Shown: positions 1,948-54,327 of the stretch, piece by piece
Layout of the letters: every line of letters starts with the position of its first letter
How positions within the stretch are numbered: the first letter of the stretch is position 1
NCBI GenBank assembly: GCA_950295325.1
Contig: OX485805.1
Coordinates: forward strand, 54,708,758-54,772,757
Direction of reading: 5' to 3'
Length of the DNA: 64,000 nucleotides
Source: Polytrichum commune
Taxonomy: Eukaryota > Streptophyta > Polytrichopsida > Polytrichales > Polytrichaceae
Notes under the pieces: model-generated
Told to the model about the DNA's origin: nothing
The model's database searches: none
The model's input: the letters and a program-made list of their open reading frames with translations, nothing else
Program-made: the position numbers and the translations under genes

Positions 1948-2613
1948 GTGAAACCATATGCATCTTCCATATTGGAACCTGCACATGCAAAGTCTCATGC
2001 ACAAACAGCTAGAGAGGATCGTGCTATAGCGAGAGACTATTGGAGGAAGAAAGCGGAGAGAAATAGGGGTTGGTTAAGATCCGTCATAAAATTACACCAA
2101 GAACAGACCGATAGTGAACCAAAGGAGGGAGATCACATTCCGGTTGAGGACGACACCTCAACAGGCATATTATCGCCTCTTAAACCCCAACAATTAAATT
2201 TTGGTTCAACTTCGGGAGAATCACAAAATCAATCAATACAACCCTCTCAAGTTTTATTAACTCCGCCACCACCACCACCATCTCCACCACCTCCGGTACC
2301 ACCGCCACTACTAATGGCGCAGCCAATACCACCTAATCCAAATCCTCGTATTACTAATGTAGTACACATTCCTTATTTTTTAGGACGCCCAGGTGCTGAT
2401 CCTGATACACATATTGCTAAATTTGAAGTAACATGTGCCGCGAATAGCATCCCTCCTGCTAAATTTCAAGAGGTCTTTGCCGCCTCTTTGCAGGAGGATG
2501 CCTTCGCATGGTATTTAAGGCAACCCACATTTGCGGATTGGAATGCATTGAAAAATGCCTTCCTAGATCATTTCCGACCCTTAGGTTTTGCTAGTAAACA
2601 CTATATTCGTTAA
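1948..2613 (+). CDS. gag: Retrotransposon Gag protein (partial)
   Basis: About 221 residues. A basic N-terminus is followed by a proline run near residue 110, then the retrotransposon gag fold: PYFLGRPGADPDTHIAKFE, a short helix-rich segment, then AFAWYLRQPTFADWNALKNA and FLDHFRPLG. The W-x-x-L...F...F-R pattern is the signature of plant Ty3/Gypsy capsid domains. The frame stops at 2611-2613, well before any zinc knuckle, protease or reverse transcriptase, and nothing recognisable follows, so this copy is truncated on its 3' side. The frame differs from the preceding pre-gag ORF. The first Met at 1948 may not be the true start. Confidence 0.75.
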   Translation: MKPYASSILEPAHAKSHAQTAREDRAIARDYWRKKAERNRGWLRSVIKLHQEQTDSEPKEGDHIPVEDDTSTGILSPLKPQQLNFGSTSGESQNQSIQPSQVLLTPPPPPPSPPPPVPPPLLMAQPIPPNPNPRITNVVHIPYFLGRPGADPDTHIAKFEVTCAANSIPPAKFQEVFAASLQEDAFAWYLRQPTFADWNALKNAFLDHFRPLGFASKHYIR

Positions 2614-2741
2614 ATTGAGACTTTTTGGGCATTTTGAGACATTCACATAAATAAGAACAAGGATAAATGGAACACATATTGGAGAAAGTTGTAAGATGCG
2701 AACACTTTGAAGCAGGTGTTTAGACCTAGAACCCCATAAAT

Positions 2742-3030
2742 AACTCATATTTGTGATGGTTTAGGGTGGGCAATCCAAATCTTAGACCACATTGAAGGGG
2801 AAACCTTAAAACATTCATATTATTGCACACAAAGTATTAGAGCTTGTATGAATATGGTTTAGGTAGGGCAATCCAAACCATAGATCATATTGAAGGGTAA
2901 ATATGTTAACCAATATAATATTGCATACAAAATATTCCAAACTCATATTTGTGATGGTTTAGGTAGGGCAATCCAAACCTTAGACCATATGGAAGGGGAA
3001 ATCATGTCTAACTTATATTATTGCAAAAAA
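2742..3030. repeat. Tandem repeat, three units of about 100 bp
   Basis: Three degenerate direct copies begin near 2742, 2850 and 2945. Each contains TTTAGGTAGGGCAATCCAAA-like sequence, then TTAGACCATATTGAAGGGGAAA, then a TATTATTGCA segment. It lies in the decayed 3' flank of gag. Open frames here are artefacts of the repeat. Confidence 0.6.
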
Positions 3031-3182
3031 AAAACATACAAAGTGTGGCATGTAAAATGCATAGCATGCTAACACCACACATCCATTGGATAGTGCGACC
3101 CAAAATGTTCTTGACTATGGCCCAAAACCCTACGCCTACTATGGCCTATCTAGCCTCGGAGACTACCTCTTTTTCTTTTGCT

Positions 3183-3968
3183 TCATTTTCTTTTGCTTTT
3201 TTTTTCTTTTGCCTCTTTTTCTTTTGCCTCTTTTTCTTTTGCTGCAGCTTCTTTTGCTCGCATTGCTTCAACATTCCTGAAAATCTCCGCCCCGCGACTA
3301 TAGCCATTCTTGGGGTGAACGCCATCAATAACACATTTTGGATTCCGTCGGCCGCCCGAATTATACGACGAAGAATTCGAATACGATGAAGTGGACTGTC
3401 TTGCATTTCTGGTCATGGAGTAGAAACGCTCCAACTCGATGGACACACTAGCCCGCATAGGTTTACGGGTGGGAGCAACCTGCAACGCGTCAATGCAAGG
3501 ACACATGTGTTAGTTTAGGGAGGAAAACCCAAACGTGTCACACATTCATTTTTTAAGTGCAAAATGATTGTAATGCGCGGATAACCATGTTTTTTTTTTG
3601 GGGGGGGGGGTTCACCTTGTCACCGGGGGCGTTCCCATCGGAGTTGGCGAGGAGGGGCAAGGCATCCCGCAAAGGAATAGGAAGGGTGCCACTCTTCGTA
3701 GGCCGAGCGTCCATCCGCAACCGTCGTTGAGGTGTAATATGGCCATCGGGTCGAGAGGGGACGTCCGGACGCATTTGCGATCTATGCCCTTCAGCGGCGA
3801 CGGGGACGCAGATCGCCGGAAGATTTGCTTGGGTGGGGGGCTATCAACGACGCCGGTGTCAAGAGGCTCCTTGGAGTAGTCCATGGTTGACGCGGCGTCG
3901 TAAACGGTCTCGTAGAAGAAGCTCCCCAAGTCTGACTCGCTGACGATGTCAATCGAGGGCTCCAAACG
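3183..3968 (-). pseudogene. Copy 1 of the Ser/Pro-rich ORF with basic coiled tail (downstream gene)
   Basis: This is the counterpart of 42118-43102. One exon runs from about 3968, after a CCAG acceptor, to about 3615. It encodes an acidic stretch and then VVDSPPPK and SASPSPL, which align with VVNSPPP and APSPSPL in copy 2. The last exon, 3479 to 3183 after a TTGCAG acceptor, encodes SSSYNSGGR, GYSRGAEIFRNVEA and a Lys/Glu/Ala-rich tail; copy 2 has TTSYNSGARP, GFSRGPEIFRAMEA and a shorter tail. There is no known domain. A Met start is not identifiable, so it may be a separate gene or alternative 3' exons of the upstream gene. A T9-G10 homopolymer (3589-3610) sits at the exon-intron boundary. 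Confidence 0.4.
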
Positions 3969-4111: not shown

Positions 4112-4958
4112 TCAAATGAGCTTGTTAAATTTCGCGTGAGATAACAACTCTCTGTACAAATGGTCTCGTGGATCCAAGTATCTCTCGCCTATCGGATTAT
4201 TCCTAACAAAATTGTTTACGGGTAGTCCGCTTCCCCAGAGCGCCTGGAGGTATTTACTAAGGTCTAACAAAAATCGGTCCCGGACCTTCTCGACCGTCCA
4301 CGTAGGGCACACTATGAAGTTGGCCGTCGGGTTCAACATGTTCTTTTGCGGCGCTGTCGTCCACCATGAGCGTGTTCTCACGGGTGGGGCGGACGTCGTA
4401 GGGGACGCCTATCAAGGACGGTCGCTGGTCCCAAAAAATGGGCTTCAAGACCTTGAGGTATTGGGGGGAAGCGGGGTTGTTTGGTTTTTTGACGACTTTG
4501 CCGTCCTGTGTGTACAATATTCTACAGGCTTCCTGTGCTAGGACCATGCAGGGGGGCTCGATGCCCTTGAAGATGAACTCCACGACGGCATCGGTGTTCT
4601 CGGCCTTCATGGAGCTCCACACAACCACCCACCATCGTTGTTGGGCGATCTGGAGGAAGGTCCGAAGCCACGGGCGGAGGTGAACTAGCTTGCTCTTTAT
4701 GAACGTGGGCGGCCCGTCGTAATTAGCGTCCTCGGGCTTGCAAAAGGGCACTGTGGGGGCCCTAGGGCAATGAACGCACTGCACGAGGACACCGTTCATG
4801 TCTAACACCAGGAATCGTTTCTTCGGCAGCGGGGGCGGGGCGGGTAAAACCGGGGGGGCCGCCGTGCTGCCCTCTGCGCTCCTTGGAGAAGAGCGTCGGG
4901 AAGCCGCTACGCTATGCTCCGAGCCTTGCGGATACGAGCGAGAGAAAACGGGGGCGAC
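4112..4958 (-). pseudogene. Copy 1 FCP1/NIF-like HAD phosphatase exon, frameshifted
   Basis: The open frame starts after a TAA at 4959-4961. It reads through a Pro/Ser-rich linker into KKRFLVLDMNGVL (HAD motif I), WVVVWSSMKAENT (motif II region) and NTLMVDDSA (the DD of motif IV). It then loses frame near 4343-4347. The other frame continues with QKNMLNPTANF, a segment ending NNPIGERYLDPRD, and FNKLI before the stop. Plant NLI-interacting-factor (FCP1/SCP-like) phosphatases share this order, including the NPFG-type motif. No Met lies between the upstream stop and the catalytic motif, so the exon must be entered by splicing. As read it is disabled by one apparent single-base insertion. Confidence 0.65.
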
Positions 4959-5392: not shown

Positions 5393-5416
5393 AGTTTGGG
5401 TCGACCGACCCAAACT
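5393..5416. repeat. Family-1 palindrome in intron 3 of copy 1
   Basis: Arms AGTTTGGGTCG and CGACCCAAACT flank the central bases AC; symmetry is perfect over 24 bp. It lies 20 bases downstream (minus strand) of the conserved GAG/GTAATG donor of exon 3. Confidence 0.95.
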
Positions 5417-5696
5417 GAGTGGGGTCAGTGCATTACCTCGCCTTGGTCGTGCCTCGACGATGTTGAGGCCGGCATCGCGTGCGCTGCCCCACCTCTGTCA
5501 CCGCCGCCTCCGACGACGACGTCAGCCGCAACTTGCTCCTGCAAAGGCTGACTGTCAGGCCTTTGTCCCAACCCAACCTCCGCATGCGCATCATGCATTG
5601 GTTCATCGACTGGGTTAGGAGTAGAGGTATCACCAGGCCTTTGCGGGCCTTCAACATCTAACATGGGCTCGTCCACCGGGGTCTGGTCGGGGACGG

Positions 5697-5789
5697 GGTT
5701 TGGGTCGGCCGACCCAAACCCTGCTGCTTGGCGAGCGTCGCTCTGGGACGCTACAACGTCGGCACTGTTTGGGTCGGACGACCCAAACA
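5697..5789. repeat. Two family-1 palindromes inside the coding tail of copy 1
   Basis: Sites at 5697-5720 (centre GC, outer bases GG...CC) and 5766-5789 (centre GA, outer bases TG...CA). The outer base pairs differ between the sites but stay complementary. On the minus strand both read in frame, as GFGSADPN and MFGSSDPN, within the disordered tail of exon 3. Confidence 0.95.
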
Positions 5790-6978
5790 TGTGGGGGTCG
5801 TCCCGCTGGTGGTGTGGGGGCGAGAGGATGGGAGGCCGGAGCGGCGGGGGCGCCAACAAGCTGGACGCTCCGGGGACGCGCCAAAGGTTGGGGTCGTCCA
5901 CCTACTGGACGGGCGCGTAAGGACGGGCGTGCGGCTGCAGCAACTGTGCGAAGCTGAAAGAATGCTGCAGCGTGGGCCGCGGGGCGATATCCTGTGGCGG
6001 GAAGCCTGCGGGAATGAACTCGGGGGAGCCATCACCAATCCCTACGCCAGCATGCCCTGGATCACTTGCGTGATGAGCTCTGCTTGGGACGGAGTTTGGG
6101 CCATCGCCCTTTGCCGCTCCTGCTCCAACAGGAGAGCCCTCAACTCCGCGACTTCGTTGCGGACCGAGGGTTCCTCGGCAGCAGCCCTCTGCAGTCGCAC
6201 ACGCTGCTCCTCGTCTCGGAGCATTTTTGCGTTCGCCTCCTCCACGGTGAGGACCTCCGGTTTCACCCTCACATTCCCGGCGAACGCTCTGGGGGAGGCA
6301 GGATCAGACCTCAGCCTCTTGGCGAGTTCCATGTCATCCTCATCCTCGGAGCTTATTGCGATCGTCTCCTCCACCGCATAGTCGCCGTACAGTTTCTTCC
6401 CCTTCATCCTTCTCCGCTCCCTGAAGGTGGCCGTCGCGTCCCTCAAGTACATGTCCTTCGCGTCGTCCACCGTCAACGCGGGCACCAGCCTGCTCTGCGG
6501 CGTGGCAGCCCGCATGGCCTTCTTCCGCTGAGGGGCCTCGGATTCTTGAGTGAATCCTGTTGCCCCTTCCTCCACCTCCCCCTCCACTTTCTCTGCTTCC
6601 TCCTCCTCCTCCTCCTCCCCCTCCTCCTCAACCTCGCCACCTGCTTCCATCGACGGATTGCCCGGATGCAACCCGATGAGCGGCTCTGGCAATTGAACGG
6701 GGGCACGCATGGCGAATTCACCCGGGTTGATTCGCCTCGCCATATCCAAAGGATTCTCGCCCCCCTCGACTATCTCTTCAACGTAGGATCCGGGTATCCA
6801 GTCGAGGATGTCCATTTTCTTGGCCAGTGCCTTCTGGGTCCTGTAAAATTGAACATCGGCATCCTCCACATAGGAGTAGATGTTCAACCCAGACATCTGC
6901 ACAATCCAAATCAATATTATTAGTATCAACTAATGAAGAGTAAGGAAAAATGACATCCAAAACAAAATAAGAATAGTT

Positions 6979-7037
6979 AGTTTGGGTCGAGCGATCCAAA
7001 CTAGGGCAAACATAGTTTGGGTCGCTCGACCCAAACC
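6979..7037. repeat. Two family-1 palindromes in intron 2 of copy 1
   Basis: Sites 6979-7002 (centre AG, one mismatch: CGATCC in place of CGACCC) and 7014-7037 (centre CT). Both lie inside the 174-bp intron 6897-7070. Intron 2 of copy 2 has three palindromes of the other family at the equivalent place. Confidence 0.95.
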
Positions 7038-8463
7038 GTCCGTATAGGGCCTTCAGGGTTCTTTGCTTACCATGGCTGCAAAAATCGGTTTGGATCCCCC
7101 GAAAACGTTGAAGATGCAGTCCCCTCTCTTCGTGAGGGTCCTCATCATCCGCAGGTAGAACTCCATGCGCAGCTCATCCGCGGGATAGTTGGCGTACTTC
7201 GCCTCGTCATACAAGCTCCTGCTGGTACCCAACCCTTCTTGGACTTGGAAGAGTTTTTCCATCCTGGCTATAGGATGGTTGGGCACCTTAAGTAGATCAG
7301 CTTTGTACACGAAGTACAAGCACAACACGTTGACGATCTTCGTCTTCTTGTCTTTCAACGTGTTGTACGCCCCCTCCGCCGGTGCAGCAACGTAGTGAGA
7401 TTTCGAGACGGCATACTCCGGCTGTAATTTGCGCACGATCTCGTAAACCTACTCTGCCATCCTGTCCTCAACAATCCAAAACCAGACGTCGACCTCCCTG
7501 AATTTGGGGTTGGCGTAGTCCACGAACTTCGACAAGAAATGATCGTAAAAAGGGGTGCTCATAGTCCCCTCGAATGAGGCTCCAGGGATATTCCTGAAGT
7601 CTATCATTCCGAAGGGGAAGCGGTCCCCGGCTTTAGTCCTGATCGCCTTCCTGGACTCAGAGCCCGGCCAACCTTGGATCATGAGAGGCTCGACGGTGAC
7701 CATGTTGAATTGTGCATCGCCTTCGAAACTGACGATTTTCTTCTCCTTTATGAAGTTGGAGAAGGCCCGCGCTGAGTGTTCGGGAAGCACCCGGTTCCTC
7801 CCCCCCTTCACGAGCTTGGATCTGAGGAAGTCGTCTCCCGCCTCCCTCATGAGTGCCGCCATGGACGCACTGGTGAACTTATATTCGGCTTTGAAGGCCC
7901 TCCAGTGCGCCTCTTCGACCTCCCCGTCCACGATGAGCTTCTTCTCAGGCACCAGCTTGTGCAGCTCTTGGACGATGGTTGTCTTCTTCTTCCTGTTCTC
8001 CGTCCATTCCTTCATGGTGTAGCATGAAAGGACAAAGATCTTGGGTTTGGTGAAGACGATCTTAGGGTGGACCCAGCATCTCTTCGCCGTCGTCTCCACG
8101 TGTAGGATGTGGGACGCCGTTTTTCCCATCTCTGTCTCGGAAAGACCTTGAAGCGCTCTGAAGAACTCCCTCACCAGAGGCTTCATTTGCTTGAAGCGCG
8201 TAGTCTGGTTGAAGAGCATGCCGGTGTCGGGGTCCATAAGGTCCCCCGTCTCGTGTTTTTCAAAAACACTCCTCCATTTTCCCCACACGGAGTTGGACGC
8301 GGTGATCAAATATATTTCTCCTCTCAACTCGTTGTATTTTTTTTGCTTGTGGCTAGCATTGTCTATCGAGGAGAATTTATTGATCATCTGATATTTGAAG
8401 TCCTGCACACGTAGCCAACAATTCATGTTAGACAACACATAATGGAATAACAAATGTAACAGC

Positions 8464-8601
8464 AGTTTGGGTCGATCGACCCAAACTATAAACTTGGTAA
8501 AGATAACAAAGCCATGCAAGAGTTTGGGTCGACCGACCCAAACTATGAAATTGTTGAAGACAATAAAATAATGAAAGAGTTTGGGTCGGTCGACCCAAAC
8601 A
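8464..8601. repeat. Three family-1 palindromes in intron 1 of copy 1
   Basis: Sites 8464-8487 (centre AT), 8521-8544 (centre AC) and 8578-8601 (centre GT), spaced exactly 57 bp start to start. The last begins seven bases inside the intron from the GAG/GTGAGT donor. Sequence between the sites is not repeated, so this is not an ordinary tandem array. Confidence 0.95.
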
Positions 8602-9084
8602 TACTCACCTCCCATTTGGGGTTCTTATCTTTAGCATTCTTCCTTTTTCTGGGAGGCCTGCCATAAAACTCCCACACCTCCCTCGAGGCCATGATGTTTC
8701 TGATCCACGATGTCTGATAGGCCCTCTTTTTGTTCCCCATGTTGAAGAACCTGGAGATGTCGCTGAGGACCGTCTCGTTGTCCGACCAAACCACCAAAGC
8801 CTCCAAACTTTTAGTTTCTCCTTCTGGTTGTTCGGGTCGTTCCACTCGGTCATCAGCTGGATTTTTTTTTATGCCTCCACACTGTGCTGCCCGTCAATCA
8901 ACCAGAAGTCTCATTTGGAAATTGCCGGCCACATATCAGGCGTCGGCATTTTCTTCATCCCTTGTGGCATGACAACAATCGTCTGCCTGTCGTCCTTAAA
9001 CTGCCCGCCCAAGATTTGAGCGACCATCTAGTCGACGTAGGCGTCCTCCTTGGCTCGGACACATTTCTCGGGTGGCGCAAGGTG

Positions 9085-9771
9085 GCACTGATGATGAAGA
9101 TGAAACGAGCAATGGCAACTTCGAGGAGAAGGAAGACCACAAAAAGGAAAATGCAGCGGAAAATTTCTATGATGAAAAATTAATGTATTTAAACAACATG
9201 AACACAATGATGAAGATAAAGAGATTGAGGAATAGCCAACAATAATGAATAGAAAGAAGAAAGGAAAGTTCACTAGGAGGTGAGTAAAACAATCAAGCAA
9301 ATACATGAGGAAGAAGGTGGAGTTCTACCCACGCCAAAAGAAATTGCACCTTGGTACCTAGAAGAAGAAAAGAATGAGGCAGAGAAACCCAAGATTCAGA
9401 GCCCTGAGAAAGGGAGTGTCCCAACCAAGATCCAAGCAAGGGTAAACAAAATCCTAGAGAATGTAATGAACCACACAAGAGCAAACATTTTGATAGGGCA
9501 ACTGCTAGAGATAGCCCCTTATTGAAAAAAACAAATAATGGATGCACTTACCAGCCAAGAAGAAGAGTTGGATAAACCAACTCAAACATATCAAGTAACG
9601 ACAAAAAGATTTGACGAAGAAATGCTCATGATTTTGGTAGTTGTGAAAAATAGGCGTGTACCATACACATTAATTGATGGTAAATCAAGAGTAAACATCA
9701 TCACATAAAATAGTAAAGAGAAAGTCGGGACTCAAGAAGATAGATCCCACACCTTTCACGATAAAGATGGC
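9085..9771 (+). pseudogene. Ty3/Gypsy gag-protease fragment, left of a solo LTR
   Basis: Decayed plus-strand coding sequence. An acidic/Lys-rich linker ends with ANILIGQLLEIAPY. After a stop, a segment follows that reads VPYTLIDGKSRVNIIT, the aspartic-protease region, where plant Gypsy elements usually have a DGGSGVNII-type motif. Several stops interrupt it. It continues across the inserted LTR at 11759. The fragment adjoins truncated copy 1 at about 9080, so either it inserted there or a rearrangement joined them. Confidence 0.6.
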
Positions 9772-39890: not shown

Positions 39891-42117
39891 TTGTGGAAGC
39901 CAAGAACCAAACACAACCCAAACAACTCATGTTGTTGGGTTTAATCATTATAGCCCACCAAACAATTATGCACTTTGTTGTTGCAATATCACCAAGGATT
40001 CATTACAACACTTGACAGTTTCATGGCGGCACCCTCCCATTGGCAATAAACCTGAGTTGGCCTTTGCCGCCGGTCCACACTCCTTACCGCCCATCCTGCA
40101 CCCTATCAAATTCAAGACTTCACATTCTCCCCAAAGGTTACTTTCTTACTTGGGATCCAAGTTAGCAAGGTGTTTGCCATAGTATACTTTATCGTGTTTG
40201 CTCTTTTGAGCCTATCTTGTCAAGTGGGAGGCTTGCATGATGATGTGAGGAGGTGTTAGTCTCTTGCCAAGTCAACGTTTAGAGCAATAAAGTGTAAATA
40301 ATCATTGTCCAAGAAAGAAAAATAAAATAAATTGTTAGTTTTCGTGATGAAGCAAGCATGAACAAAGAGTATATTTGCTCGCAAGCTAGTACCTCTTTCA
40401 ATGGGGGACCTGTATTGAGTGTCCATAATAGGTCACCAACTAAACTAGGAGCAAATACCTTAACCCTTTGTTGCCACTCAAAAAGGAGTGGTGTGACAAT
40501 AAAGCCAAATTATGTCTAAACATCTAGGCCCCCAAGCGGCATAAAGATTCTTTCATATTTTAAAATTAATTAGGTGCAATTTTTTTAATTTTTTTAATTT
40601 TTAAAGGAGATTGATATCATATTGATGCTCCAAAGTGATTTCGAAACTTATAGAAGTTCACCAAAACTTGAATGAGAAAATAATTTTCTTACCATTGTTG
40701 CCTGTTGTAAGGATTAGCTAACTTTAGTAGTATTAGACAACACCCCCGAACCAATTATGCTTTAAAATTTGGCATTCAAGCTCATTGTGTGAGACACTCA
40801 TCATCCAATCAACAAACTTTGACCATCTCCAGAATAGGCACATATACTCCAAAGTTTAAATTCCAATGTATATCTATTCTAAACATGTAGTATTAACTCT
40901 AATTATTTGAGGAGCGTTGATCCATTCCATCATCCAAAATTTAAAAATAGATTGTCACCAGTGCCTTAACATGAGAAAGTCTCTTGAAACTTTATGACTA
41001 TCGAATCTTCTCAAATTTTGTTAACATGTAGAGTTCTTCCCCCAGGTACGCAACTCCCATATTATATGCGTGGGGCATCTGCTTTAAAACAACTTAGAGG
41101 ATGGCTTTTGTAAAAATGATATCAAATTATATAAAAAGAAAAGGACCAAAAAGTTGGATGAGGGCCAAATTAAATAAAATGAGATGTAGAAAAAATTGGG
41201 TTGAATACTTAATAATAAAAACAAACTCCACAATGTATATAAAGAATTGAAACACCTACTTTTTAATCTTTGTATAGTGTCTAATTTTAGAAGAACTACA
41301 TGAGTAGTTGCCTCCCATTAAATTTAAAAGTCATTAGAATTTTTAATTTATATTTAAAAATATTAAAATTTCATTAAAAACTCAAAAAATTGGGTAGTTT
41401 GGCCTATGGTGTCTATATTTTAAGAATCATATAATTATATTTTTAATGTAATTATATGTTTCAAGGAATATTCATTTACTATATATAATTACATTTTTGG
41501 ATTTCTTGTTAGAAGGGCTATAAGAGCTTCCTACATTAAAATTTTTTTGATCACTTGTGATTGGACTAAAATGCATTATAAGTGATTATAATCAGGGCCA
41601 TATAATATGGGAGCTGTGTACCCAGGGTTTTTCCTTCCCAAATCTTCATAATGGAGTTTGGTTTCCGTAGACAAGTGGCCAATCATAAAATATGTTGGTA
41701 AGTGTGGACTAAGTTAACACTATATTCGGTATTTGGAGACTTTTTGTTGATTATGAGACTATATAAGGATGCACATTTCAAAAATGGACCAGTAATGACG
41801 ACTAAAAATCCCATATGTATAATGGTATGCTACTATTATTATACATAAAGGCATGGAAGTGAACAAAAATGTGAGGCATACATGAAAATAGTTGCGTATG
41901 AAATGACAAATCGTTATGAATGGAAGGGAAGATGCGAAGAATGAATGGAAGTTGAATGAATTAATTGGGATAGAAATACAATTATAATGGAAATACCATC
42001 AATGTCTTGAGTAACTTGGAATAGCATAGAAAGTAAGCACTTAAATATGTTCTACACCTAAGCCCATTTAGGGAGTCCGTCCCACTAGTACGCTTCTAGT
42101 CACACTAGTCCGACCCA
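39891..42117. other. AT-rich intergenic DNA
   Basis: No gene or repeat structure recognised up to the stop codon of the copy 2 block at 42118. Confidence 0.45.
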
Positions 42118-43102
42118 CTATTTTTTTTTGGCGGCTAAGTCTTTTTTTTTGGCGGCCTCCATGGCTCTAAAAATCTCAGGCCCACGACTGAATCCTTGTG
42201 TGTTGCCTGGATAGGAATATGTGTCGTTCTTGCATGTTTCAGGACGCGCTCCCGAATTGTACGAGGTGGTATTATAAGTAGAATACGAGGGCGTTTGCGA
42301 AAGGGAACGTCTTGCGCTTCTCCGGAGGGCCAAACAACGATCGGACTCGGAAGATGCGGCCTTGAGGGCGTGCCTATCCAAGGAGGACGTGGAGGAGGGC
42401 CGGGCACCAAGCGAGCGGGTAGCCACCTGCGAAACAGCGTCATAGGAAGATAAGAATAGGAATGGAGTGGGGAAAATAATGAGGGCGGTTTGGGATGGGC
42501 GCTCGTAAAGAGAACGGCACGCAAACGGAAGACAAGGAAAGCAAAAGCGGGAAAGGGGTTTAGGGTTGAGGAGGGCACCTTGGCTTTGGGGACGTCCATG
42601 CGGGGAACGGTGGGAACGAGGGGGGCGTCGACGGGAGCATCCGGAGCCGATGGAACTATTGCAATGTTGGATGGCGGGGGGGGGGGGGGGGGGAGTCGAG
42701 GCGTGGAGGGCCCACGATCGCGGAGGACGTTGTGGGGGGAGGAACGGAGTCGGCGGGGGAGGTGTGGCAACGGGGGCCTTCCATGCGGAGACGGTGGCTC
42801 GGCCCGCGACGAGCGACGGCGTCGTCCCTCGAGGGCGAGAGGTGTCCCAAACGAACGAGCGTCCGTTTCTCCTTGGAGAGGGGGGAGGGCGACGGGGCGT
42901 ACGCGCGGGGGACAAGTGTTGGGGGCGGGCTGTTGACGACGCCGTCGTCGCGGGAGTAATCCACGGCCGAGGCCGCGTCGACCGCCGAGAAGTGGTAGAG
43001 GGATGGCATTTGGAAGTCCGTGACATCGCGGGAAGGGGATGCGGGGGGCGAGAGGCGACGGGAAGAGCCGTCGACCACAGGGGCGTCGCATATGGGGGCA
43101 GA
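42118..43102 (-). CDS. Ser/Pro-rich protein with basic tail (copy 2), exons approximate
   Basis: Likely exons are 43102 to about 42579 (after a CCCATAG acceptor) and 42426-42118 (after TTTCGCAG). The first encodes SAPICDAPVVDGSS, an acidic stretch, VVNSPPP and a long Pro-rich region. An 18-G run at 42676-42693 makes its frame uncertain. The second encodes VATRSLGARPSST, YNSGARPETC, GFSRGPEIFRAMEA and a Lys-rich end. Both exons are conserved in copy 1 (3183-3968), which argues for a real gene. No known domain; predicted disordered. No Met start is visible after the conserved HAD stop at 43214, so it may be a downstream gene with an unseen first exon or alternative 3' exons. Confidence 0.4.
42676..42693. 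repeat. G18 homopolymer in coding exon
   Basis: Eighteen consecutive G on the plus strand, Pro codons on the minus strand. The length is likely unstable or mis-assembled. Confidence 0.9.
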
Positions 43103-43213
43103 CTATGGGCAAGAACAAGAACAACAACAATCACAACAACAAAAGACATCCAAAAACGGGGCAAGCATTAGATATGTGAACCACATGATAACAAGCAAAG
43201 ACATGGAGGCATT

Positions 43214-43966
43214 TCAAATCAATTTATTGAGTTTGGCGAGCCTCATGATGCTCTTATATACATTATCGCGGGGGCTTAGCGCCGCATTGCCGAAGGGGTT
43301 GGACCTAACAAAAAATGGGATGCTACCGGCGTGGAGCACGAGCCTTCTAAGGTAGGGGGCTAGCCTATCGACCAAAAAGGTGTCTTGCCTATCGCCGGTC
43401 CAAGTGTCCGGGAAGATGACGTTGCCCGGGGGGTTCAACACGCTCTTGGTGGGACTGTCGTCGATCAAGACGGTGTTCTCAGGAGTCGGCCACCACCCGT
43501 GGGGCGTCCCCTGCAGACGGGGGACGCCTTGCCAGAGTCTTGAGCGGAGGACCTTGAGGAACTGTTGTCCTCCGCCTCGACCGCCAAACTTGGGCACCGG
43601 TTGGCCCTTCTCGTCGAGCAGCTCGTCGCATTCCTCTTGGCCGAGGACGAGGCAAGGGCGCGGGAGATCACGGAACAAGAAGTCGACGATGGGCTCCGTG
43701 TTCTCCATGACCATGGAGCTCCACACAACGACGTGGGCGAACTCGACCACCTCGCGAAGGAAGTCGCGCAGGCCGGGACGGGCGCGGACAGCCTTGCGGT
43801 TTATGAGGGTGTCGAGCTCGCCGTCATAGTCCCTTTCGTCGGGGTGACGGAAGGGACGTGTGGGAACCCTGGGGATGTGTTGGGTGTGACACAAGACCCC
43901 GTTGAGGTCAAAAACTATAAAAGGCTTGTTCCTGGTTCGAGGTCCACTGGTCGAGGGGTTGCGACC
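43214..43966 (-). CDS. FCP1/NIF-like HAD phosphatase exon (copy 2), probably exon 4 of the upstream gene
   Basis: The frame opens after TAG at 43967-43969 and runs to TGA at 43214. It encodes LFIVFDLNGVLCHTQ (HAD motif I, DxN in place of DxD), VVVWSSMVMENTEPIVDFLF, NTVLIDDSPTKSVLNPPGN and FFVRSNPFGNAALSPRDN, ending KLNKLI. This order matches plant NLI-interacting-factor/FCP1-like phosphatases. No Met precedes motif I, so the exon must be reached by splicing. ATAG at 43967-43970 is a phase-0 acceptor compatible with the AAAGAG/GTAACT donor of exon 3 at 44605. The product would be a C-terminal phosphatase-like domain on the ParB/methyltransferase-like protein. Asn at the second motif I position may alter or abolish activity, though plant NIF-like proteins often have DLNG. 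Confidence 0.7.
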   Translation of the reverse strand, partial: GRNPSTSGPRTRNKPFIVFDLNGVLCHTQHIPRVPTRPFRHPDERDYDGELDTLINRKAVRARPGLRDFLREVVEFAHVVVWSSMVMENTEPIVDFLFRDLPRPCLVLGQEECDELLDEKGQPVPKFGGRGGGQQFLKVLRSRLWQGVPRLQGTPHGWWPTPENTVLIDDSPTKSVLNPPGNVIFPDTWTGDRQDTFLVDRLAPYLRRLVLHAGSIPFFVRSNPFGNAALSPRDNVYKSIMRLAKLNKLI

Positions 43967-44116
43967 TATCTCCGGGGGGTCCTGTGATGAACAACGCGAC
44001 TAGTTTAATTCTATGATCCAATAATGAAATTTTTGCGTTCAAAATAAAGACGATGCATTATGGGAAAAGAGGAGGAAGTAAGGAGGGTTCAAGGAAATAT
44101 GCACAAGGGCACAATT

Positions 44117-44264
44117 ACGAACGACCGTTCGTGAATGAAGGTTGCGGGGGCGGTGCGCATCATTTACGAACGCTCGTTCGTGAGCGCGGATGCATACATA
44201 TACGAACGCTCGTTCGCGAAGGAAGTCGAGAGGGGGTCGCACAGTTTTACGAACGAGCGTTCGT
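44117..44264. repeat. Four family-2 palindromes in intron 3
   Basis: Core ACGAACG-NN-CGTTCGT at 44117 (AC), 44166 (CT), 44202 (CT, last base changed) and 44249 (AG). All lie between the phosphatase exon and exon 3. Here the 3' flank is GA rather than AAA. Confidence 0.95.
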
Positions 44265-44557
44265 GAGTGAGGTGTGTATGCAAAGAATGCAAAGACGCGC
44301 AAGAGCACAGACAACACAAGACGCGAGAATATGCAATAAGTTGTGGTCATGCGAGCAGAGATCGTCTGCTCATATATTAATTCGGTGAATATGTACAATT
44401 GTCTCGCGTGATAATCTATCAAAATTTCCTAAGGAAAAAATCCAGTGTCCTACAAAATTGATCGGCCCAAGGGATCACGTAGAAAAAGGCTCGCGCGGGC
44501 AACGTGATGTCGATGGAGTTGAAGCGCCAAGAACACAACGCGGGGGTTAGTGATGTT

Positions 44558-44631
44558 ACGAACGCGCGTTCGTAAAACATTTGGCATTCTCAGAGATCAG
44601 TTACCTCTTTGGTTAACGAACGCGCGTTCGT
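44558..44631. repeat. Two family-2 palindromes around the exon 3 donor
   Basis: 44558-44573 (centre CG) is in intron 3. 44616-44631 (centre CG) is in the last codons of exon 3, read as TNARS, about ten bases before the GAG/GTAACT donor. Confidence 0.95.
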
Positions 44632-47600
44632 AATATCCATTGGGGTAGCAGCCTCTGGATCCATGACCTCCGCCGGACGCTCCGCCTGAGACGACTGGGT
44701 CTGTTGGATGAGCTCCACGTCGTCGTCCCCGCCCAGGTCGAGTCTCTCCATGCGGACATCCTCCATGTGCGCGGATGGATGTCGTTCCTGTTCAGGGCTC
44801 TCCACGACCATCCCACGCGGACCTGCCGAGTCATTGGGGCTCCCCTGCGTTTCCTCCACAATGACCATGTCAGTGTGTTGCGCAGTGTCATCGCCCCTCC
44901 TATCTACAACCCTTGGGACGACGGTGAAAGAGGCCGTGTCCGTGTCTGTGGGCAGTCCTACCCTTGAAGGGGGAGGGGTGAGGACTGCCGGACCTGAAGA
45001 TTCACGAACGCGCGTTCGTAAATCTTCATCCTCCCTTAGCGCCGCCGTGATTGCATCGTGGGAGGTTGAGGCGGTCGCCGTCACCTCCGGGGGCAATGGA
45101 CTTCCCGCCGGCGTTGGGTGTGGCGCTGTTTGGTGGGAAGGCCCTCCTTGGTACATGACTGGAGGTGGGGGCTGTGAGGGGTATCCTCCAGGGGGGAAGG
45201 GGTAAGGTTGCTGGACCGGCGCAAAGAAGCTCTGCATGTTTCTGAGCATCTCGAAGATGGCGTCAGTTTTGACCGCTGATTCCCTCAGCTGCTCTTGCAG
45301 CCTGGCCAGATGCTTGGCGCTTTCCTCCTGGGCTGCAGCCATTTCCTCCTTCATCTTCGCCTCCAGCTTGGCGTTGAGCTCAGAGACGGTAAGCGCCTCC
45401 TCCTTCACCCGCTTGTTCTTGTCGTAGTCCACCCCAAGCTCGGCCATGATGTCCATGTCCCCCTCGTCCTCGTCGGAGACCTCGATGATTGCTCCCGGCG
45501 GCAACTCCACGTAGGGAGTCTTCTTCATCCTCCTCCTCGTGTTGCGGAAGAGGTCCAAAGATGGACGCGAGCGTTGGTCGAGGATGTCCAGGGTTTCCAT
45601 CTTCGGAACCACGGCGGGCCTTGGAGACTGTGACGTCGAGCATCCGCCTGGCGTTCCGAAAGGCTCCGCAAGAGACGTTCGCGCGGGGAGGAGGTCCAGG
45701 GTTGTCCCCGCGGACGACCTTGTATAACCACCCGGAGTCCCTTGAGGGTCGGGAAGATCTGTCGTTGGCGGCAAGATCCGAAGCGGGGGTACGTCGAAGG
45801 ACTGCAGAATGGCGTCCACGTTGGCGGAGGGGGCGGGCTCGTCGTCCTCTGAATCGTGGAGTGGTATGCCCTCGTCGGCGGGCATACTGAAGTCCATCCT
45901 TGGGACAGAGATGTCCTTGAGGTCCATCGTCGACGCCTTCGCACGGTGGATCTTGAAGTCTTCTTCGTCGATAGCGTCAACGAAGGTGTTGACTACGAGA
46001 CCCATCATCTGTGAGAAGAGAGCAATAAGGTCAGAAAATACGAACGCACGTTCGTAAACATCAAAGCGTGGCGTGCAACGAGTTTCAAGCATTACATTAC
46101 GAAGGGGGTTATGTTTACGAACGAGCGTTCGTAAACATCAATGCGTCACGTGCAGCGACTTTGAAACAATGCGTTGAGAAGTTGGTTAACTTTACGAACG
46201 AGCGTTCGTAAATGGAGTCTGGACAACTTACCATGGCCGCATACATGAATTTGGAGCCTCCACATACGTTGTATACCGTCTCTCCACTTATAACCAGACT
46301 CTGCAATATAGAGACGTAGAACTCCATCCTGAGTTCCATGGCGGGGAAGATGGTGTAGAGGGTCTCTTGCAGCAGATCCTTGGGAGGGGGATGCGGGATG
46401 CTGTAGATTTTCTTGAACGTGTTGTTCGCCTTGATAGGCGGTCGCCCATCCCTAAGCTCATTGTACGTCAAGAAAATCAGGCTGACCGCTCCCACCTGCT
46501 TGTTGCCCCTGGCCTCGTTGATGGCCACGATCCCCTCCGTCTTCGCTGGCACGTACGTGCTGTGGAAGATGCTGTACTCGAATTTGATCTTCTGCTCGTA
46601 CAGCTCTGTGACGACCGACAGCTTCTCCTGTTCGACTATCCACAGCCAAACGTGTGGCTCCCTCATGGCCGGCGATTTGAACTCCATGAACTTGGCCATG
46701 AAGGGGTTGTAGAAGGGAATGTCCTTCCCCCCTGCCTTGACGCACCCGGGATCCCCCTGAAATCGATCAGGGCAAAAGAGCAACCCCGTTGATCCTCCCT
46801 CACCTCGGCCCTGCTTATGGTGCCGTCCCACTTGGAAAATGTGACCCTCTCCACGCCGGAGGTCATCACGCAAAACCTTGCCACCCCTTCGAATGTGGCG
46901 TTCCTCTTCCTCTCCAAAAATTGTATGTACAACATTACCTCGTGGGGATCCGTGTCGGTTTTCTTAGTCCTTTTGTTCCCCTTCAACTTCAAAACCGAGG
47001 CGTGCTCCTTGACCAGACTGCGCATGGAGGCTCCGTTGATGTTGTAGTCGACCTTTAACAATTGCCATTGCGGCCAGTTGATGTCGCCGTCGACTTCAAA
47101 GATTTTGTACTCTGGTGCGAGTACGCTCAATTTTCTCATGGCAGCAGTCTTCAGCTTCCGGTGGTCACACCACTCCTTGATAGAGTACGTGCCGGGCTTG
47201 TGCTTTGGCCTCTTCAAAAAGATCTTGGGATAGGGAAGGTTTCTTCCCACGGTGTTCCCAAGAACATGAATCGCACACCTCTTCAGCTCTGACTCCGTTA
47301 ATCCCTGGAGGTGTCTAAAGAACTCCCTCAGTAGTGGGGGCGCCTCACCGGTTTTTTCCGTGCTGTACTTCTCCTCGGTGTCGGGATTGACCAAATCGCC
47401 CGAGCTGTGTGCATCAAAAAACTGTGTCCACAAGTCCCAGGTGTCCCTGTTGCAGCAGATCAGTCTGAGCTCACCCTTCAGCTCAAGCACTGACTTGGTG
47501 GTGGTGGACTTCATATCGATGGAAGAGAACTTGTCTACCATCGCATCGCAAAATGCCTGCACAAAACAAGATGTCAGTGTTGCACATAATACGAACGCAC

Positions 47601-48965
47601 GTTCGTAAATTGAGTATGTAATTGAAGTTTTCATGAATCTAACACTTTACGAACGTTCGTTCGTAAACTCACCTTCCATTGGGGAGACTGGTTCTTGGCG
47701 TTCTCCCTTTCCTTTGGTGGGCATCCGTGTGCCACCCAGACGTCTCTGGCAGCCACTATGTTAGCCGCCCACGAAGCCTCGAACGCCTTGATTTTGTTCC
47801 CCGAGTTCAGGAAGGTTGAAATCTTGCGCAACTTGTCCCAATCGTCCGACCAGACCAAGAACGCCTTCCAGTACCGCAGGTCAGCCTTCAGCTCGTGCTG
47901 GAAGTTGTCGTCCTTGAGGATCTGTTGCGATGCCTCCAAGCTGTGCTGACCATCTATAATCCAGAATTCTCCATTCTGGATTCGCGGCCAATCCACCTCT
48001 GTCGGTCGGGATGTCAGCCCCTTGGGCATGACGCAGACTGTCTGTCTATCCCACTTGACGTTATTCATGAGGTTGTTTATCTGCCACTTCACCCCACCGC
48101 TCTCGCGAGACCTTACCACCCACTTGTTGGGTGACTTTTCGCACTTGAAGCAGTCCACGTTGAACGTGAAGTGGCGCCCCATGGGCCAGCAATCCTTCGA
48201 GTAATTATTGAAATCTCGTAGGATCTTCGTTGCCTTCACCGCATCTGGATTCTCACCCTTCTTTAAAGGGGTTGGCATCACGGGAGGAGAGCTCACCTCA
48301 GCGCCCTCTGTTACCCCAGACCTCTCCATTTCGTCCCGGGACCTCTTCGATGGCGTGGAATGACGGCTGGGACCCTCCGTCACCCTGCTCGCGGAAGGCA
48401 CCGGCTTGGGTGCACTTCTCGATCCTCCTGCCCCGGATGCGGATGGTTTCCGTGGGCTCTTCTTCTTCTTGTTGGCTTCCGCGACCGCGCTATTGTACTT
48501 GGAGATATTCAAGGAGAGCGCGGCCAACTTCCTTGCTGTCCAGTACGAGCTCAGGGCGTACTTCGTGAAGAGGTCCTTGAGGAAGTGTTTGGCATCAGCC
48601 ACTACGTTATTTTCCGCGTATGTGTAGGAGAAACTATGTCTCCTGTACTCCAACAATAGGTTAATGTGATCCTTCTTGTTTTTCATGTCTAGAATCACAT
48701 AATCTCCTTGTGCCTCAATTGATTCTACTTCCCAAGTCTTCATCTGCACCCATTGCTCTGGCTGGTCCGGCGTCGTTTCCAGCTCGTATGTGAAGCGAAG
48801 ACAGAAAAAACCGTCTGATGTCTTCTCTGGCAGTGCCGTCCATTCCCCTATGAAGTCCTCCTTGGGGACATAATTATCGTTTCCGTTGGGGTCGGACACT
48901 GACTCTGGTAGTTGATCTATCTGCACTGCGAACATCTCAATGGCGCTTCTGCTCGGTCTGGCCAT
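44605..48965 (-). CDS. ParB/DGQHR-like plus DNA-methyltransferase-like protein (copy 2), exons 1-3
   Basis: Exons 48965-47673, 47556-46232 and 46008-44605, with GT-AG introns of 116 and 223 bp, all phase 0. Exon 1 (431 aa): novel N-terminus, Lys/Ser-rich linker near 210-290, Cys pair CFKC, then WDRQTVCVMPKG and WIIDGQHSLEAS (Asp338), the DGQHR/ParB-like signature, followed by ISTFLNSGNK. Exon 2: IDFRGIPG (about 696) where a DPPY motif would sit, then GETVYNVCGGSKFMYAAM, matching amino-methyltransferase SAM motif I (DPFxGSGT). Exon 3 continues MGLVVNTFVDAIDEEDFKIH as the following strand and acidic residue, then a disordered acidic/Pro tail. ParB-methyltransferase fusions are known in bacteria and phages. 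The lost DPPY suggests DNA binding without methylation. One frameshift lies in a C6 run at 46727-46732. An AG acceptor directly precedes the ATG, so an upstream non-coding exon is likely. Confidence 0.7.
45004..45019. repeat. Family-2 palindrome in coding exon 3, symmetry extended
   Basis: Core at 45004-45019 (centre CG). The flanks TGAAGATT and AATCTTCA are also complementary, giving symmetry from 44995 to 45028 with one mismatched pair. It reads in frame as LRTRVRE in the disordered tail. Confidence 0.95.
46040..46209. repeat. Three family-2 palindromes in intron 2 of copy 2
   Basis: Cores at 46040 (CA), 46117 (AG) and 46194 (AG), spaced exactly 77 bp. The 46117 site is symmetric over 28 bp (ATGTTT...AAACAT). 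Equivalent intron of copy 1: 6979 and 7014, other family. Confidence 0.95.
46727..46732. other. C6 run marking the frameshift in exon 2
   Basis: Exon 2 is 1,325 bp, one short of a multiple of three. The reading changes frame here between GIPGAS and KDIPFYNPF, while copy 1 reads straight through. A homopolymer length difference of one base would reconcile both, so it may be mutation or a sequence error. Confidence 0.7.
47591..47664. repeat. Two family-2 palindromes in intron 1 of copy 2
   Basis: Cores at 47591 (CA) and 47649 (TT) within the 116-bp intron 47557-47672. The second begins eight bases from the AAG/GTGAGT donor; copy 1 has a family-1 palindrome at the same distance. Confidence 0.95.
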
Positions 48966-48998
48966 CTGCAGAGCACATAAACATTTAGTATTGTGTTT

Positions 48999-49560
48999 AC
49001 GAACGAGCGTTCGTAATTGACAAAGCAAATCATATACACTAATCATTGAACTCTGGCTATGGATACCCGTGAGAAGTTGTAATGATGTCTTCGCTGATTT
49101 CATTTACGAACGATCGTTCGTAAAGAATGTGGTTGCTAAGGTGTATTTGACACAAGTTTACGAACGTGCGTTCGTATTGTTTCTAAACAAGTCCACGAGT
49201 CGTCCAGGGTTATCTAATTTCCATGAGGGTTGTTCGAATTTCCATGAGCATCTTCTAAATAGGTGAATTAATACTTTAGTTCTTATTTACGAACGTGCGT
49301 TCGTAAATAATGCTACTTGGGAATGCAGACAATTACCATGAAGGGTTTGGTATATTGTTATAGTTTGTGATTACGAACGTTCGTTCGTATTTTTGTATGT
49401 GTAATTGGATTTGAGGATTTTCTGATGTACAGGGTATAGACGAATATACGAACGTGCGTTCGTAAAAATGGAGGGTGAGGTGCGTATTTATGAACGCACG
49501 TTCGTATATGTTTGTGGGGTAAGGCATGTATTCACGCCACATTTACGAACGAACGTTCGT
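48999..49560. repeat. Eight family-2 palindromes 5' of the methyltransferase-like gene
   Basis: Cores start at 48999 (AG), 49106 (AT), 49160 (TG), 49289 (TG), 49373 (TT), 49448 (TG), 49490 (CA, ACG changed to ATG) and 49545 (AA). Spacing 42-129 bp with unrelated sequence between. The 49545 site is symmetric over 32 bp (CCACATTT...AAATGTGG) and 49289 over 28 bp. They lie in the promoter or first intron. Confidence 0.95.
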
Positions 49561-50002
49561 AAATGTGGTCATCTGGGATTAGGAAATGGTATATTTATTT
49601 ATGTACATATATATCCGTACATATACGTATACGTATATGTACATATGCGTATAAATGTTGGTATGAATGTTGCAATCTGGCATTGTTCATGATCCTGCAA
49701 CTCGTGATCAGATTGATGAAACACAAGTGAAAAATGGAATCAGAACAAAATTGCGAGTCAGTGATTGATAGTTCAGAATGAAGAGGAAAGTGTTATTTCA
49801 TACAAAACATGACATACCTCATAATGCAGAAAACAAATCACAAGGAATTCATCAAACAACAATTTCAGATTGTGAAGGAGTGATTTGTAAAGGAAACCTG
49901 TACTCACATTGAATTGTTGCACACAAATCCTCCTGCCTTCACTTTGTCACACTCTCAAGCCTTCACAACTTATATGCAAATCCTACACAAACCCTGATGT
50001 AC

Positions 50003-50345
50003 ACAACTCACAAGCTTCACAAAACTCAAGCTTTCTGAAGCTCTCAAGCTCTCAAGCTCTCAAGCTTTCCAAATCTCTGAAGCTCTCAACCTTTCTGAAA
50101 CTCTCAACCTCTCAACCTCAAACTCAAGCTCTCAAGCTTTCTAAAACTCAAGCTCTCAAGCTTTCTAAAACTCTAAACCTCTCAAGCTTTCTAAAACTCT
50201 CTACCTCTCAAGCTTTCTATAACTCTCAAGCTCTCAAGCTTTCTAAAACTCTAAACCTCTCAAGCTTTCTATAACTCTCAACCTCTCAAGCTTTCTATAA
50301 CTCTCAACCTCTCAACCTTTCCTACTCTCAAGCTTTCCTATTCTC
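50003..50345. repeat. CTCTCAAGCTTTC minisatellite
   Basis: Irregular array of CTCTCAAGCTTTCTAAAACT-like units of about 10-30 bp, strongly pyrimidine-biased on the plus strand. It lies between the two palindrome clusters. Confidence 0.85.
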
Positions 50346-50531
50346 AAGGTTCTGACAACACAACAAAACAACATTCACAATGAGGCTCTAAAATTGGCAA
50401 GGGCTTCGCCGCACCTAAGAGCTCCTCTCCTCCTCTGCTCCAAATGACAAATGAGGAGGAGAGAGAGGGGCGCGGGGAGGTAGCCGGCGCCGCTAGGGTT
50501 TCCAAGCGGTGGCCACGTGGCTAGTGGCCAC

Positions 50532-50800
50532 TGGCGAGGGCTGGGATGGGGGAGGGGGAGGGGGATGTGGGATGGGGAGGGGGAGGGGGAGGGGGAGGGG
50601 GATGGGGATGGGGATGGGGATGGGAATGGGGAGGGGGAGGGGGATGGGGAGGGGGAGGGGGATGGGGATGTGGATGGGGAGGGGGATGGGAGGGGATGGG
50701 GATGGGAATGGGGATGGGAGGGGAGGGGATGGGGAGGGGATGGGATGAGGATGGGATGAGGATGGGATGGGAGAAGGGGAGGGGGAGGGGATGGGGATGA
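50532..50800. repeat. G-rich (GGGGAN)n array
   Basis: About 270 bp of GGGGAG/GGGGAT hexamer variants on the plus strand with almost no C. Runs of four or five G every six bases could form G-quadruplexes. Long frames on both strands here are compositional artefacts. Confidence 0.9.
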
Positions 50801-54183: not shown

Positions 54184-54327
54184 CTTCATATGTGAGGTCC
54201 CGCAACGGTGTGGCGAGAGTTGTTTGTGATTTTTGAGCCATATATGTAGGCATATCTCGTATCCGCTTTTGTATGCATTGCGGTGGTTGTTGTGTTGGTC
54301 ATTTTATTGGTGGTTTGTTTAGGTTGG

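What the first reader, a model, noticed from the sequence alone, without database searches (positions are those of the whole stretch)
5393..8601. The paralogous block carries a different palindrome at the same positions
Copy 1 (3.2-9.1 kb) has eight palindromes with arms GTTTGGGTCG and CGACCCAAAC, also with two free central bases. Neither family occurs in the other copy. Yet both sit in intron 1 next to the donor, intron 2, the disordered coding tail and intron 3. Architecture is shared (T-rich outside, CG-NN-CG inside) but the arm sequence is switched throughout. That suggests co-evolution of a DNA-binding protein with all of its sites, as proposed for VANC proteins and their motifs in VANDAL transposons.
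Basis: partly seen in the sequence, partly recalled or inferred. Interest (0 to 1): 0.96.

Follow-up and report, generated by a model that had tools for sequence, protein, structure and literature searches.

The report
Transposons with lineage-specific palindromic address tags
A family of large jumping genes in what looks like a plant genome carries many copies of a short mirror-image DNA tag beside and inside its genes, and each branch of the family uses its own version of the tag, as if an element-encoded protein and its many binding sites had changed together.

Summary
Window 5394-8600 holds seven perfect and one near-perfect GTTTGGGTCG-NN-CGACCCAAAC palindromes (B); 44.1-54.2 kb holds 30 sites, up to five mismatches, of TTTACGAACG-NN-CGTTCGTAAA (A). 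Copy 2 is a complete 16-kb DNA transposon with CACTATATTCG ends; copy 1 is a decayed relative. They encode an NIF phosphatase, a DUF7869 protein (transposase candidate) and a protein modelled as ParB-like plus N6-adenine-methyltransferase-like, lacking the PP motif. A-type sites lie upstream of genes, in introns and in the coding tail. A third branch uses TTTACGGACG-NN-CGTCCGTAAA (C); read-through peptides suggest further variants; main types follow well-supported protein clades. Between two A subfamilies aligned arm cores are 97% identical, flanks 76%, central NN 67%. Against: four of eight C-branch upstream regions hold one exact A-type site; protein comparisons do not show which domain reads the site; decayed B-like sites also lie near one end of copy 1. 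Best reading: private recognition sites of the ParB/methyltransferase-like protein, working like VANC/VANDAL without being a member.

The parts
2599..2624 (+). left terminus of copy 1 (CACTATATTCG...GAGAC), NIF-side end; lies in an ORF (1930-2613) that reads by eye as a retrotransposon gag
2857..3534 (.). four degenerate B-type sites (4-5 mismatches), 0.26-0.9 kb from the left end of copy 1, partly in 92-nt tandem repeats
4115..4823 (-). copy 1 NIF-type phosphatase, decayed (two frames)
   Evidence: PF03031 on ORF 4257-4958; tblastn with copy 2 NIF, 40-43%
5394..5415 (.). B-type palindrome, predicted intron 3
5698..5719 (.). B-type palindrome, coding tail
5767..5788 (.). B-type palindrome, coding tail
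6980..7001 (.). B-type palindrome with one mismatch, predicted intron 2
7015..7036 (.). B-type palindrome, predicted intron 2
8465..8486 (.). B-type palindrome, predicted intron 1 (57-bp tandem unit)
8522..8543 (.). B-type palindrome, predicted intron 1 (57-bp tandem unit)
8579..8600 (.). B-type palindrome, predicted intron 1, next to the donor
7068..9126 (-). copy 1 exon 1 remnant and exon 2 of the ParB/methyltransferase-like gene, with in-frame stops; 36% identical to copy 2 over the exon-2 stretch
   Evidence: tblastn
41718..57865 (.). copy 2: whole element, 16.15 kb from CACTATATTCG... to ...CGAATATAGTG
43214..43999 (-). copy 2 NIF-type phosphatase ORF; a gene of its own or the last exon of the ParB-type gene
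   Evidence: PF03031 E 7e-17
44114..44267 (.). four A-type sites just before the NIF ORF
44555..44576 (.). A-type site, predicted intron 3
44605..46008 (-). copy 2 exon 3: low-complexity tail with two A-type sites in coding sequence (44613, 45001)
46037..46212 (.). three A-type sites, predicted intron 2
46232..47556 (-). copy 2 exon 2: N6-adenine-methyltransferase-like fold (one frame break)
   Evidence: fold of homologues
47588..47667 (.). two A-type sites, predicted intron 1, one next to the donor
47673..48965 (-). copy 2 exon 1: N-terminal domain, linker, ParB-like domain (WIIDGQHSLEA)
   Evidence: fold of a homologue
48996..49563 (.). eight A-type sites upstream of the ParB/methyltransferase-like gene
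53084..54186 (.). ten A-type sites upstream of the DUF7869 ORF
54250..57464 (+). DUF7869 gene (two overlapping open stretches), divergent from the ParB-type gene; candidate transposase by inference
   Evidence: PF25273 E 1e-39; same gene order in other copies

Best explanation
The palindromes are recognition sites of a sequence-specific DNA-binding protein encoded by the transposon itself, most likely the ParB/methyltransferase-like protein. A dimer reads two 10-bp half-sites across a 2-bp spacer. Sites are placed upstream of the element's genes and inside introns of the protein's own gene, so that the protein marks and regulates its own element; I think it most likely keeps the element transcribable (anti-silencing, VANC-like), possibly with autoregulation. 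Protein and sites have changed together along the family tree, giving each branch a private address. Shown: the sites, their placement, their conservation against spacer and flanks, and their agreement with protein clades. Inferred: which protein, which domain, dimer reading, and the anti-silencing effect.
For: Arms constrained: between window copy 2 and a copy of another A subfamily, aligned arm-core bases are 96.8% identical, flanks 76.4%, central NN 66.7% (same over all bases, gaps included: 92.4, 63.6, 63.0%); 27 sites, chosen in copy 2 only. Lineage purity in fetched loci: 30 of 30 A loci have A-type and no B-type; 18 of 18 B loci have B-type; 8 of 8 C loci have C-type. Clades: A, C and B sides each have 99-100 support on the protein tree. 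Placement upstream of the ParB-type gene and DUF7869 in A, B and C copies. Fold: ParB/Noc chains are the nine best PDB matches (7bm8 E 3.8e-4, prob 1.00); exon 2 matches N6-adenine methyltransferases and METTL3-METTL14 in all 50 rows shown (best E 3.3e-3). The NIF-side terminal repeat is much alike in A, C and copy 1 although palindromes differ (one C and one B end seen), so the site reader need not be the transposase. Number of intron-1 sites varies, 2-6 in 18 B loci, at 39, 45-48 or 57 bp spacing.
Against: No binding, expression or methylation data. The ParB-like part does not track the motif: ParB/N-terminal divergence ratio 0.72-0.77 between main types, but 0.46 within A, 0.70 within B, 0.81 within C and 0.49 between B and B'. 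B and B' differ by 12-14 fixed exon-1 residues, only 1 in the ParB-like part. Four of eight C-branch upstream regions hold one exact A-type site. Exon-2 fold matches have no chain at E 0.001 and both models are of middling confidence (pLDDT 68 and 64). Degenerate B-type sites lie 0.26-0.9 kb from one end of copy 1, which would also suit a role in transposition.
Confidence: 0.52

Rival explanations
1. The sites are read by the transposase (DUF7869 protein) or a TnpA-like helper and serve transposition, as subterminal repeats do in CACTA/EnSpm elements (recalled).
For: Termini begin CACTA and end TAGTG; the DUF7869 N-terminal part is 48% identical between A and B against 65-72% for the rest; 8-14 sites lie upstream of the DUF7869 gene; degenerate B-type sites lie 0.26-0.9 kb from the NIF-side end of copy 1, and three with 4 mismatches beyond the NIF gene of the B copy. 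These last facts were added on re-check and raised this rival from 0.13 to 0.16 and lowered the best reading from 0.55 to 0.52.
Against: In the two complete A copies no site (up to 5 mismatches) lies within about 2.4 kb of the NIF-side end or 3.7 kb of the other; the NIF-side repeat is alike in A, C and copy 1 although the palindromes differ; sites fill introns and coding tail.
Confidence: 0.16
2. The sites are substrates: the ParB/methyltransferase-like protein, or an active partner, methylates bases in its own palindromes to mark the element.
For: Exon 2 has an N6-adenine-methyltransferase-like fold; a paper on Ectocarpus suggests that such accessory proteins may bind and modify their own transposon (PMC12477816, passages).
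Against: None of 23 exon-2 proteins has a [DNE]PP[WYFL] motif in exon 2 (the only hit, NPPL, is near the N terminus of P0014), so this domain looks inactive; other forms of the motif were not searched.
Confidence: 0.14
3. Neutral repeats: the palindromes spread by tandem duplication and gene conversion and agree with clades only because they are inherited with the gene.
For: Tandem units carry them; simple descent would also give lineage-specific motifs.
Against: Arms are kept while spacer and flanks are not; the same arm is kept in upstream, intron and coding positions.
Confidence: 0.08
4. RNA-level signal: the palindromes act as hairpins in pre-mRNA, for splicing or against RNA-based silencing.
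For: Several sites sit directly after predicted splice donors.
Against: A 2-base loop suits a DNA dimer site better than an RNA hairpin; sites of one element share one arm sequence, whereas hairpins would let each stem drift by compensation; arrays lie upstream of genes. These are arguments, not tests.
Confidence: 0.06

Closest known systems
VANC proteins and their motifs in VANDAL transposons (Arabidopsis; PMC5735166, passages read)
   Same: Transposon-borne short motifs, dense in non-coding parts (upstream and introns), amplified by tandem repeats, different between related lineages; proposed co-evolution with an element-encoded protein.
   Different: Here the motif is a 22-bp palindrome with free centre, not the 9-base YAGTATTAY of VANC21; the candidate reader has a ParB/methyltransferase-like fold; the element has DUF7869 and CACTATATTCG ends. 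Anti-silencing is untested here.
ParB + DNA-methyltransferase accessory gene of a giant transposon (Sola1-1 of Ectocarpus; PMC12477816, passages read; its references 50 and 51 on green and red algae not read)
   Same: Same two-domain make-up, carried by a large DNA transposon on the strand opposite the transposase gene.
   Different: Its main text has no occurrence of 'palindrom'. Here candidate target sites are visible, the methyltransferase part lacks the motif searched, and the candidate transposase is DUF7869, not Sola1.
TnpA and subterminal repeats of CACTA/EnSpm elements (recalled)
   Same: CACTA-like ends; element protein reading many short motifs.
   Different: In the complete A copies sites are not subterminal; no CACTA transposase domain in the ORFs scanned.
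ParB-parS (recalled)
   Same: ParB-like fold and palindromic sites in clusters.
   Different: Eukaryotic transposon; DNA reading by the ParB part not shown.

Membership tests
VANDAL/VANC | element-borne motif clusters in non-coding regions with tandem growth | tested here: met
VANDAL/VANC | lineage-specific motifs that follow protein lineage | tested here: met
   exception: one exact A-type site in 4 of 8 C-branch upstream regions
VANDAL/VANC | Mutator-like element with VANDAL transposase and a VANC gene | tested here: not met
   Pfam scan of nine ORFs gives NIF, DUF7869 and a separate Tc1-type transposase, no Mutator domain; no VANC sequence was compared
VANDAL/VANC | protein removes silencing marks from its element | not testable with these tools
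   needs methylome and expression
ParB-methyltransferase transposon accessory genes | ParB-like fold | tested here: met
   Foldseek E 3.8e-4, prob 1.00, model of homologue P0014; no Pfam hit above cut-off
ParB-methyltransferase transposon accessory genes | amino-methyltransferase fold | tested here: met
   all 50 PDB rows shown are such enzymes or METTL3-METTL14, prob up to 0.99, but best E 3.3e-3 and none at 0.001; for MboIIA and M1.HpyAVI the substrate is recalled
ParB-methyltransferase transposon accessory genes | catalytic motif of an active N6/N4 methyltransferase | tested here: not met
   no [DNE]PP[WYFL] in exon 2 of 23 proteins
ParB-methyltransferase transposon accessory genes | in a giant DNA transposon, opposite strand to the transposase | tested here: met
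   16.15-kb element; divergent order of ParB-type and DUF7869 genes in four copies; DUF7869 as transposase is inferred
CACTA/EnSpm | terminal CACTA...TAGTG | tested here: met
   AA/TT just outside may belong to the repeat
CACTA/EnSpm | 3-bp target-site duplication | tested here: inconclusive
   flanks of the two complete copies show no consistent duplication
CACTA/EnSpm | CACTA transposase domain | tested here: not met
   nine ORFs scanned, only DUF7869 on the candidate transposase
CACTA/EnSpm | subterminal repeats read by an element protein | tested here: inconclusive
   no A-type site within 2.4 kb of an end in two complete A copies, but degenerate B-type repeats 0.26-0.9 kb from one end of copy 1

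The most novel reading that the evidence does not exclude
A self-addressing transposon system in which a ParB fused to a dead methyltransferase reads a private palindromic address spread through its own element, and in which address and reader have been switched together at least twice between the three main branches and, by peptide evidence, again within them. It would give the ParB-methyltransferase accessory proteins of eukaryotic transposons a target motif, and would be a second, independent invention of the VANC principle.
Probability: 0.4. Interest if true: 0.88.

Novelty: new variant of a known kind. Interest (0 to 1): 0.78.

Why it matters
How a DNA-binding protein and dozens of dispersed sites can change specificity together is an open question. 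Here one genome holds hundreds of gene copies (346 scored matches in three searches) in at least three motif classes, so protein swaps and site swaps can be tested directly. It also gives the little-understood ParB-methyltransferase genes of giant eukaryotic transposons a visible candidate target, and would make the VANC strategy look like a recurrent solution rather than a peculiarity of Arabidopsis.

Tried and rejected
Domain-divergence test: I expected the ParB-like part to diverge specially between motif types; it does not. Fixed-residue test, B against B': 1 of 14 (or, with P0064 added, 1 of 12) fixed differences is in the ParB-like part, the rest in the N-terminal domain and linker, with 3 or 4 B' rows only. 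Target-site duplication: TTAA fits the window copy, ACTA or ACTAA the C4 copy; left open. The ends of the B copy L044/L045 were not found with the A end sequences. Viral contigs: 23 pattern matches, none a relative. Solved-structure sequence search: 0 hits. NCBIfam: 0. Papers: eight searches, seen as listings; only passages of PMC5735166 and PMC12477816 and the outline and abstract of PMC10398659 were read. I saw no mention of these palindromes there; that says nothing about papers not held. L042 (4 kb meant to hold an element end) matched nothing useful. One search was a failed script, corrected. The per-position information (1.0-2.0 bits in arms, 0.3-0.5 at NN) is partly circular, because sites were picked by likeness to the motif. 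The CpG-decay count (32 of 204 A-type changes are CpG transitions) was not used, because the A loci are near-copies and most changes are at the two outermost bases.

Labels on the tree: types come from peptides read through into introns. The peptide LRTxVRK fits both A and C; the labels of P0002, P0009, P0010, P0015 (A) and P0045 (C) therefore rest on their clade and are circular. P0053 and P0072 were left out as short; 12 of 50 rows had no label. B' and B'' are known from peptides only. The shuffle figure counts the unlabelled rows as a group and is not used. In one search four sites in C loci were listed as A; one search shows that they are ties or hybrids.
Full report
WHAT IS THERE. One search finds the 22-mer GTTTGGGTCG-NN-CGACCCAAAC exactly at 5394, 5698, 5767, 7015, 8465, 8522 and 8579; a one-mismatch copy is at 6980. 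A second family, TTTACGAACG-NN-CGTTCGTAAA, has 30 sites with up to 5 mismatches at 44114-54165. Three base-shuffled windows give none of either. In the 407.8-Mb genome the first motif occurs 9,231 times exactly, its reversed control never. I call the copy-2 motif A and the copy-1 motif B.

THE ELEMENT. Copy 2 is a complete 16.15-kb DNA transposon, 41718-57865, with inverted ends CACTATATTCG.... A second complete copy of the same branch lies on C4 (L041+L039+L040). Gene order is the same in the A, B and C copies as far as fetched: an NIF-type phosphatase ORF (PF03031); a ParB-type gene of at least three predicted exons on the same strand; and, divergent, a DUF7869 gene (PF25273), which I take to be the transposase. 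Exon 3 ends at a predicted donor, so NIF may be the last exon of the ParB-type gene rather than a third gene; splice sites were read by eye. Copy 1 (left end at 2599) is a decayed B element, 36% identical to copy 2 over the exon-2 stretch; its other end was not found in the window. Seven contigs of 42-78 Mb (lengths) and the retroelement ORFs look plant-like, perhaps a moss; the organism is not established.

THE PARB-TYPE PROTEIN. It has no Pfam hit above cut-off. A model of the homologue P0014 (mean pLDDT 68) has ParB and Noc chains as its nine best PDB matches (7bm8, E 3.8e-4, prob 1.00); exon 1 of copy 2 carries WIIDGQHSLEA at the matching place. A model of the exon-2 homologue P0016 (pLDDT 64) has N6-adenine methyltransferases and METTL3-METTL14 in all 50 rows shown, best E 3.3e-3, none at 0.001. 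None of 23 exon-2 proteins has a [DNE]PP[WYFL] motif in that region, so I take the domain to be inactive; that is inference. Exon 3 is a low-complexity tail.

WHERE THE SITES ARE. In copy 2: just before the NIF ORF (4), upstream of the ParB-type gene (8) and of DUF7869 (10), and in predicted introns 1-3 and the coding tail (8). In the B copy, up to 4 mismatches: 14 upstream of DUF7869, mostly 64 bp apart, 5 upstream of the ParB-type gene and one at 8628, then introns 1, 2, 3 and tail (8), and three 4-mismatch sites beyond NIF. In the C copy, up to 3 mismatches: 8 upstream of DUF7869, 6 upstream of the ParB-type gene, 4 in introns 1 and 2, none in tail or intron 3. In the two complete A copies no site is closer than about 2.4 kb to the NIF-side end or 3.7 kb to the other. 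Copy 1, however, has four degenerate B-type sites 0.26-0.9 kb from its NIF-side end, partly in tandem repeats.

CONSERVATION OF THE ARMS. Aligning five non-coding regions of copy 2 with the C4 copy, with 27 sites chosen in copy 2 alone: arm cores 96.8% identical where aligned, outer two bases 82.5%, central NN 66.7%, flanks 76.4%; with gaps counted, 92.4, 78.7, 63.0 and 63.6%. Sequence-specific reading of two half-sites with an indifferent spacer explains this better than copying of repeats.

A MOTIF FOR EACH BRANCH. Metagenomic homologues (52; 42, of which 20 new) are mostly exon-sized open frames that run on into introns, so their tails can spell the palindrome. They predicted a third motif, C = TTTACGGACG-NN-CGTCCGTAAA (noted), before its DNA was fetched; 8 of 8 C loci then fetched carry it. 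30 of 30 A loci have A-type and no B-type; 18 of 18 B loci have B-type. The A loci are the best-scoring, near-identical copies, so they are not 30 independent cases. Peptides further suggest GTTTCGGGCG (B') and GTTTCGGTCG (B'') within B, and C' = TTTACGGCCG within C (C' also seen in DNA). All fit KTTWSGRNCG. On the exon-1 protein tree (50 rows) the A, C and B sides are supported 99-100; the B' rows form one supported group inside B together with one B'' row (five labels are circular, see Tried and rejected). First-look candidates scored: 149 of 987 (A query), 101 of 1119 (C query) and 96 of 1068 (P0051 query; matches 44-46% identical, of which 18 were fetched and are B). These counts are lower bounds.

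RESULTS AGAINST. Among eight C-branch upstream regions, the site nearest the start codon is an exact A-type in 4 (L074, L075, L079 and the C7 copy), nearest A with 1-2 mismatches in 2 (L076, L078), and C-type in 2 (L077, L080). So motif families do mix at one place, between the two most similar motifs. Hybrid arms occur within the B and C groups. The tests of whether the ParB-like part tracks the motif failed. Descent alone would also give branch-specific motifs; the case for co-evolution rests on the arm-versus-spacer contrast together with the switch at many sites. Finding the degenerate sites near the end of copy 1 on re-check made me lower the best reading from 0.55 to 0.52, the novel case from 0.42 to 0.40, and raise the transposition rival from 0.13 to 0.16.

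WHO READS THEM. The NIF-side terminal repeat is much alike in A, C and copy 1 (one end each for C and B), and DUF7869 beyond its N-terminal part is 65-72% identical between A and B where the ParB-like and methyltransferase-like parts are 43% and 35%. This points away from the part of the transposase that reads the ends and towards the ParB-type protein. But the DUF7869 N-terminal part (48%) and NIF (44%) are about as diverged, so the pointer is weak.

COMPARISON. VANC/VANDAL (PMC5735166, passages; PMC10398659, outline and abstract) is the nearest in behaviour, not in kinship. The Ectocarpus paper (PMC12477816, passages) reports a ParB plus methyltransferase gene in a 21.5-kb Sola1 element and cites green and red algal cases as a possible class of accessory proteins that bind and modify their own transposon. 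This element belongs beside these, with an apparently inactive methyltransferase and visible candidate targets.

Noticed in passing
window 25119-26156: Open Tc1/mariner-type transposase ORF (HTH_Tnp_Tc3_2, DDE_3).
   Followed up: no
window 15626-18088 (-) and 34867-37263 (+): Two long ORFs that read by eye as tandem TPR-like repeats followed by a protein kinase domain.
   Followed up: no
window 21397-21419 and 51527-51549: Another pair of palindromes, ACACTAAATA...TATTTAGTGT; the second lies inside copy 2, between the two divergent genes.
   Followed up: no
L041 2907-4826 and L040 about 7017-8078: Further dense A-type arrays, many about 34 bp apart, just outside the C4 element, apparently in neighbouring elements.
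   Followed up: partly
G000:C6:18938626-18939882; protein P0014: A C-branch exon-2 match lying in a 1026-aa open frame, and P0014 in which exons 1 and 2 are continuous: intron 1 may be missing in some copies.
   Followed up: no
window 10472-11148: Tandem repeat with 156/313-bp periods.
   Followed up: no
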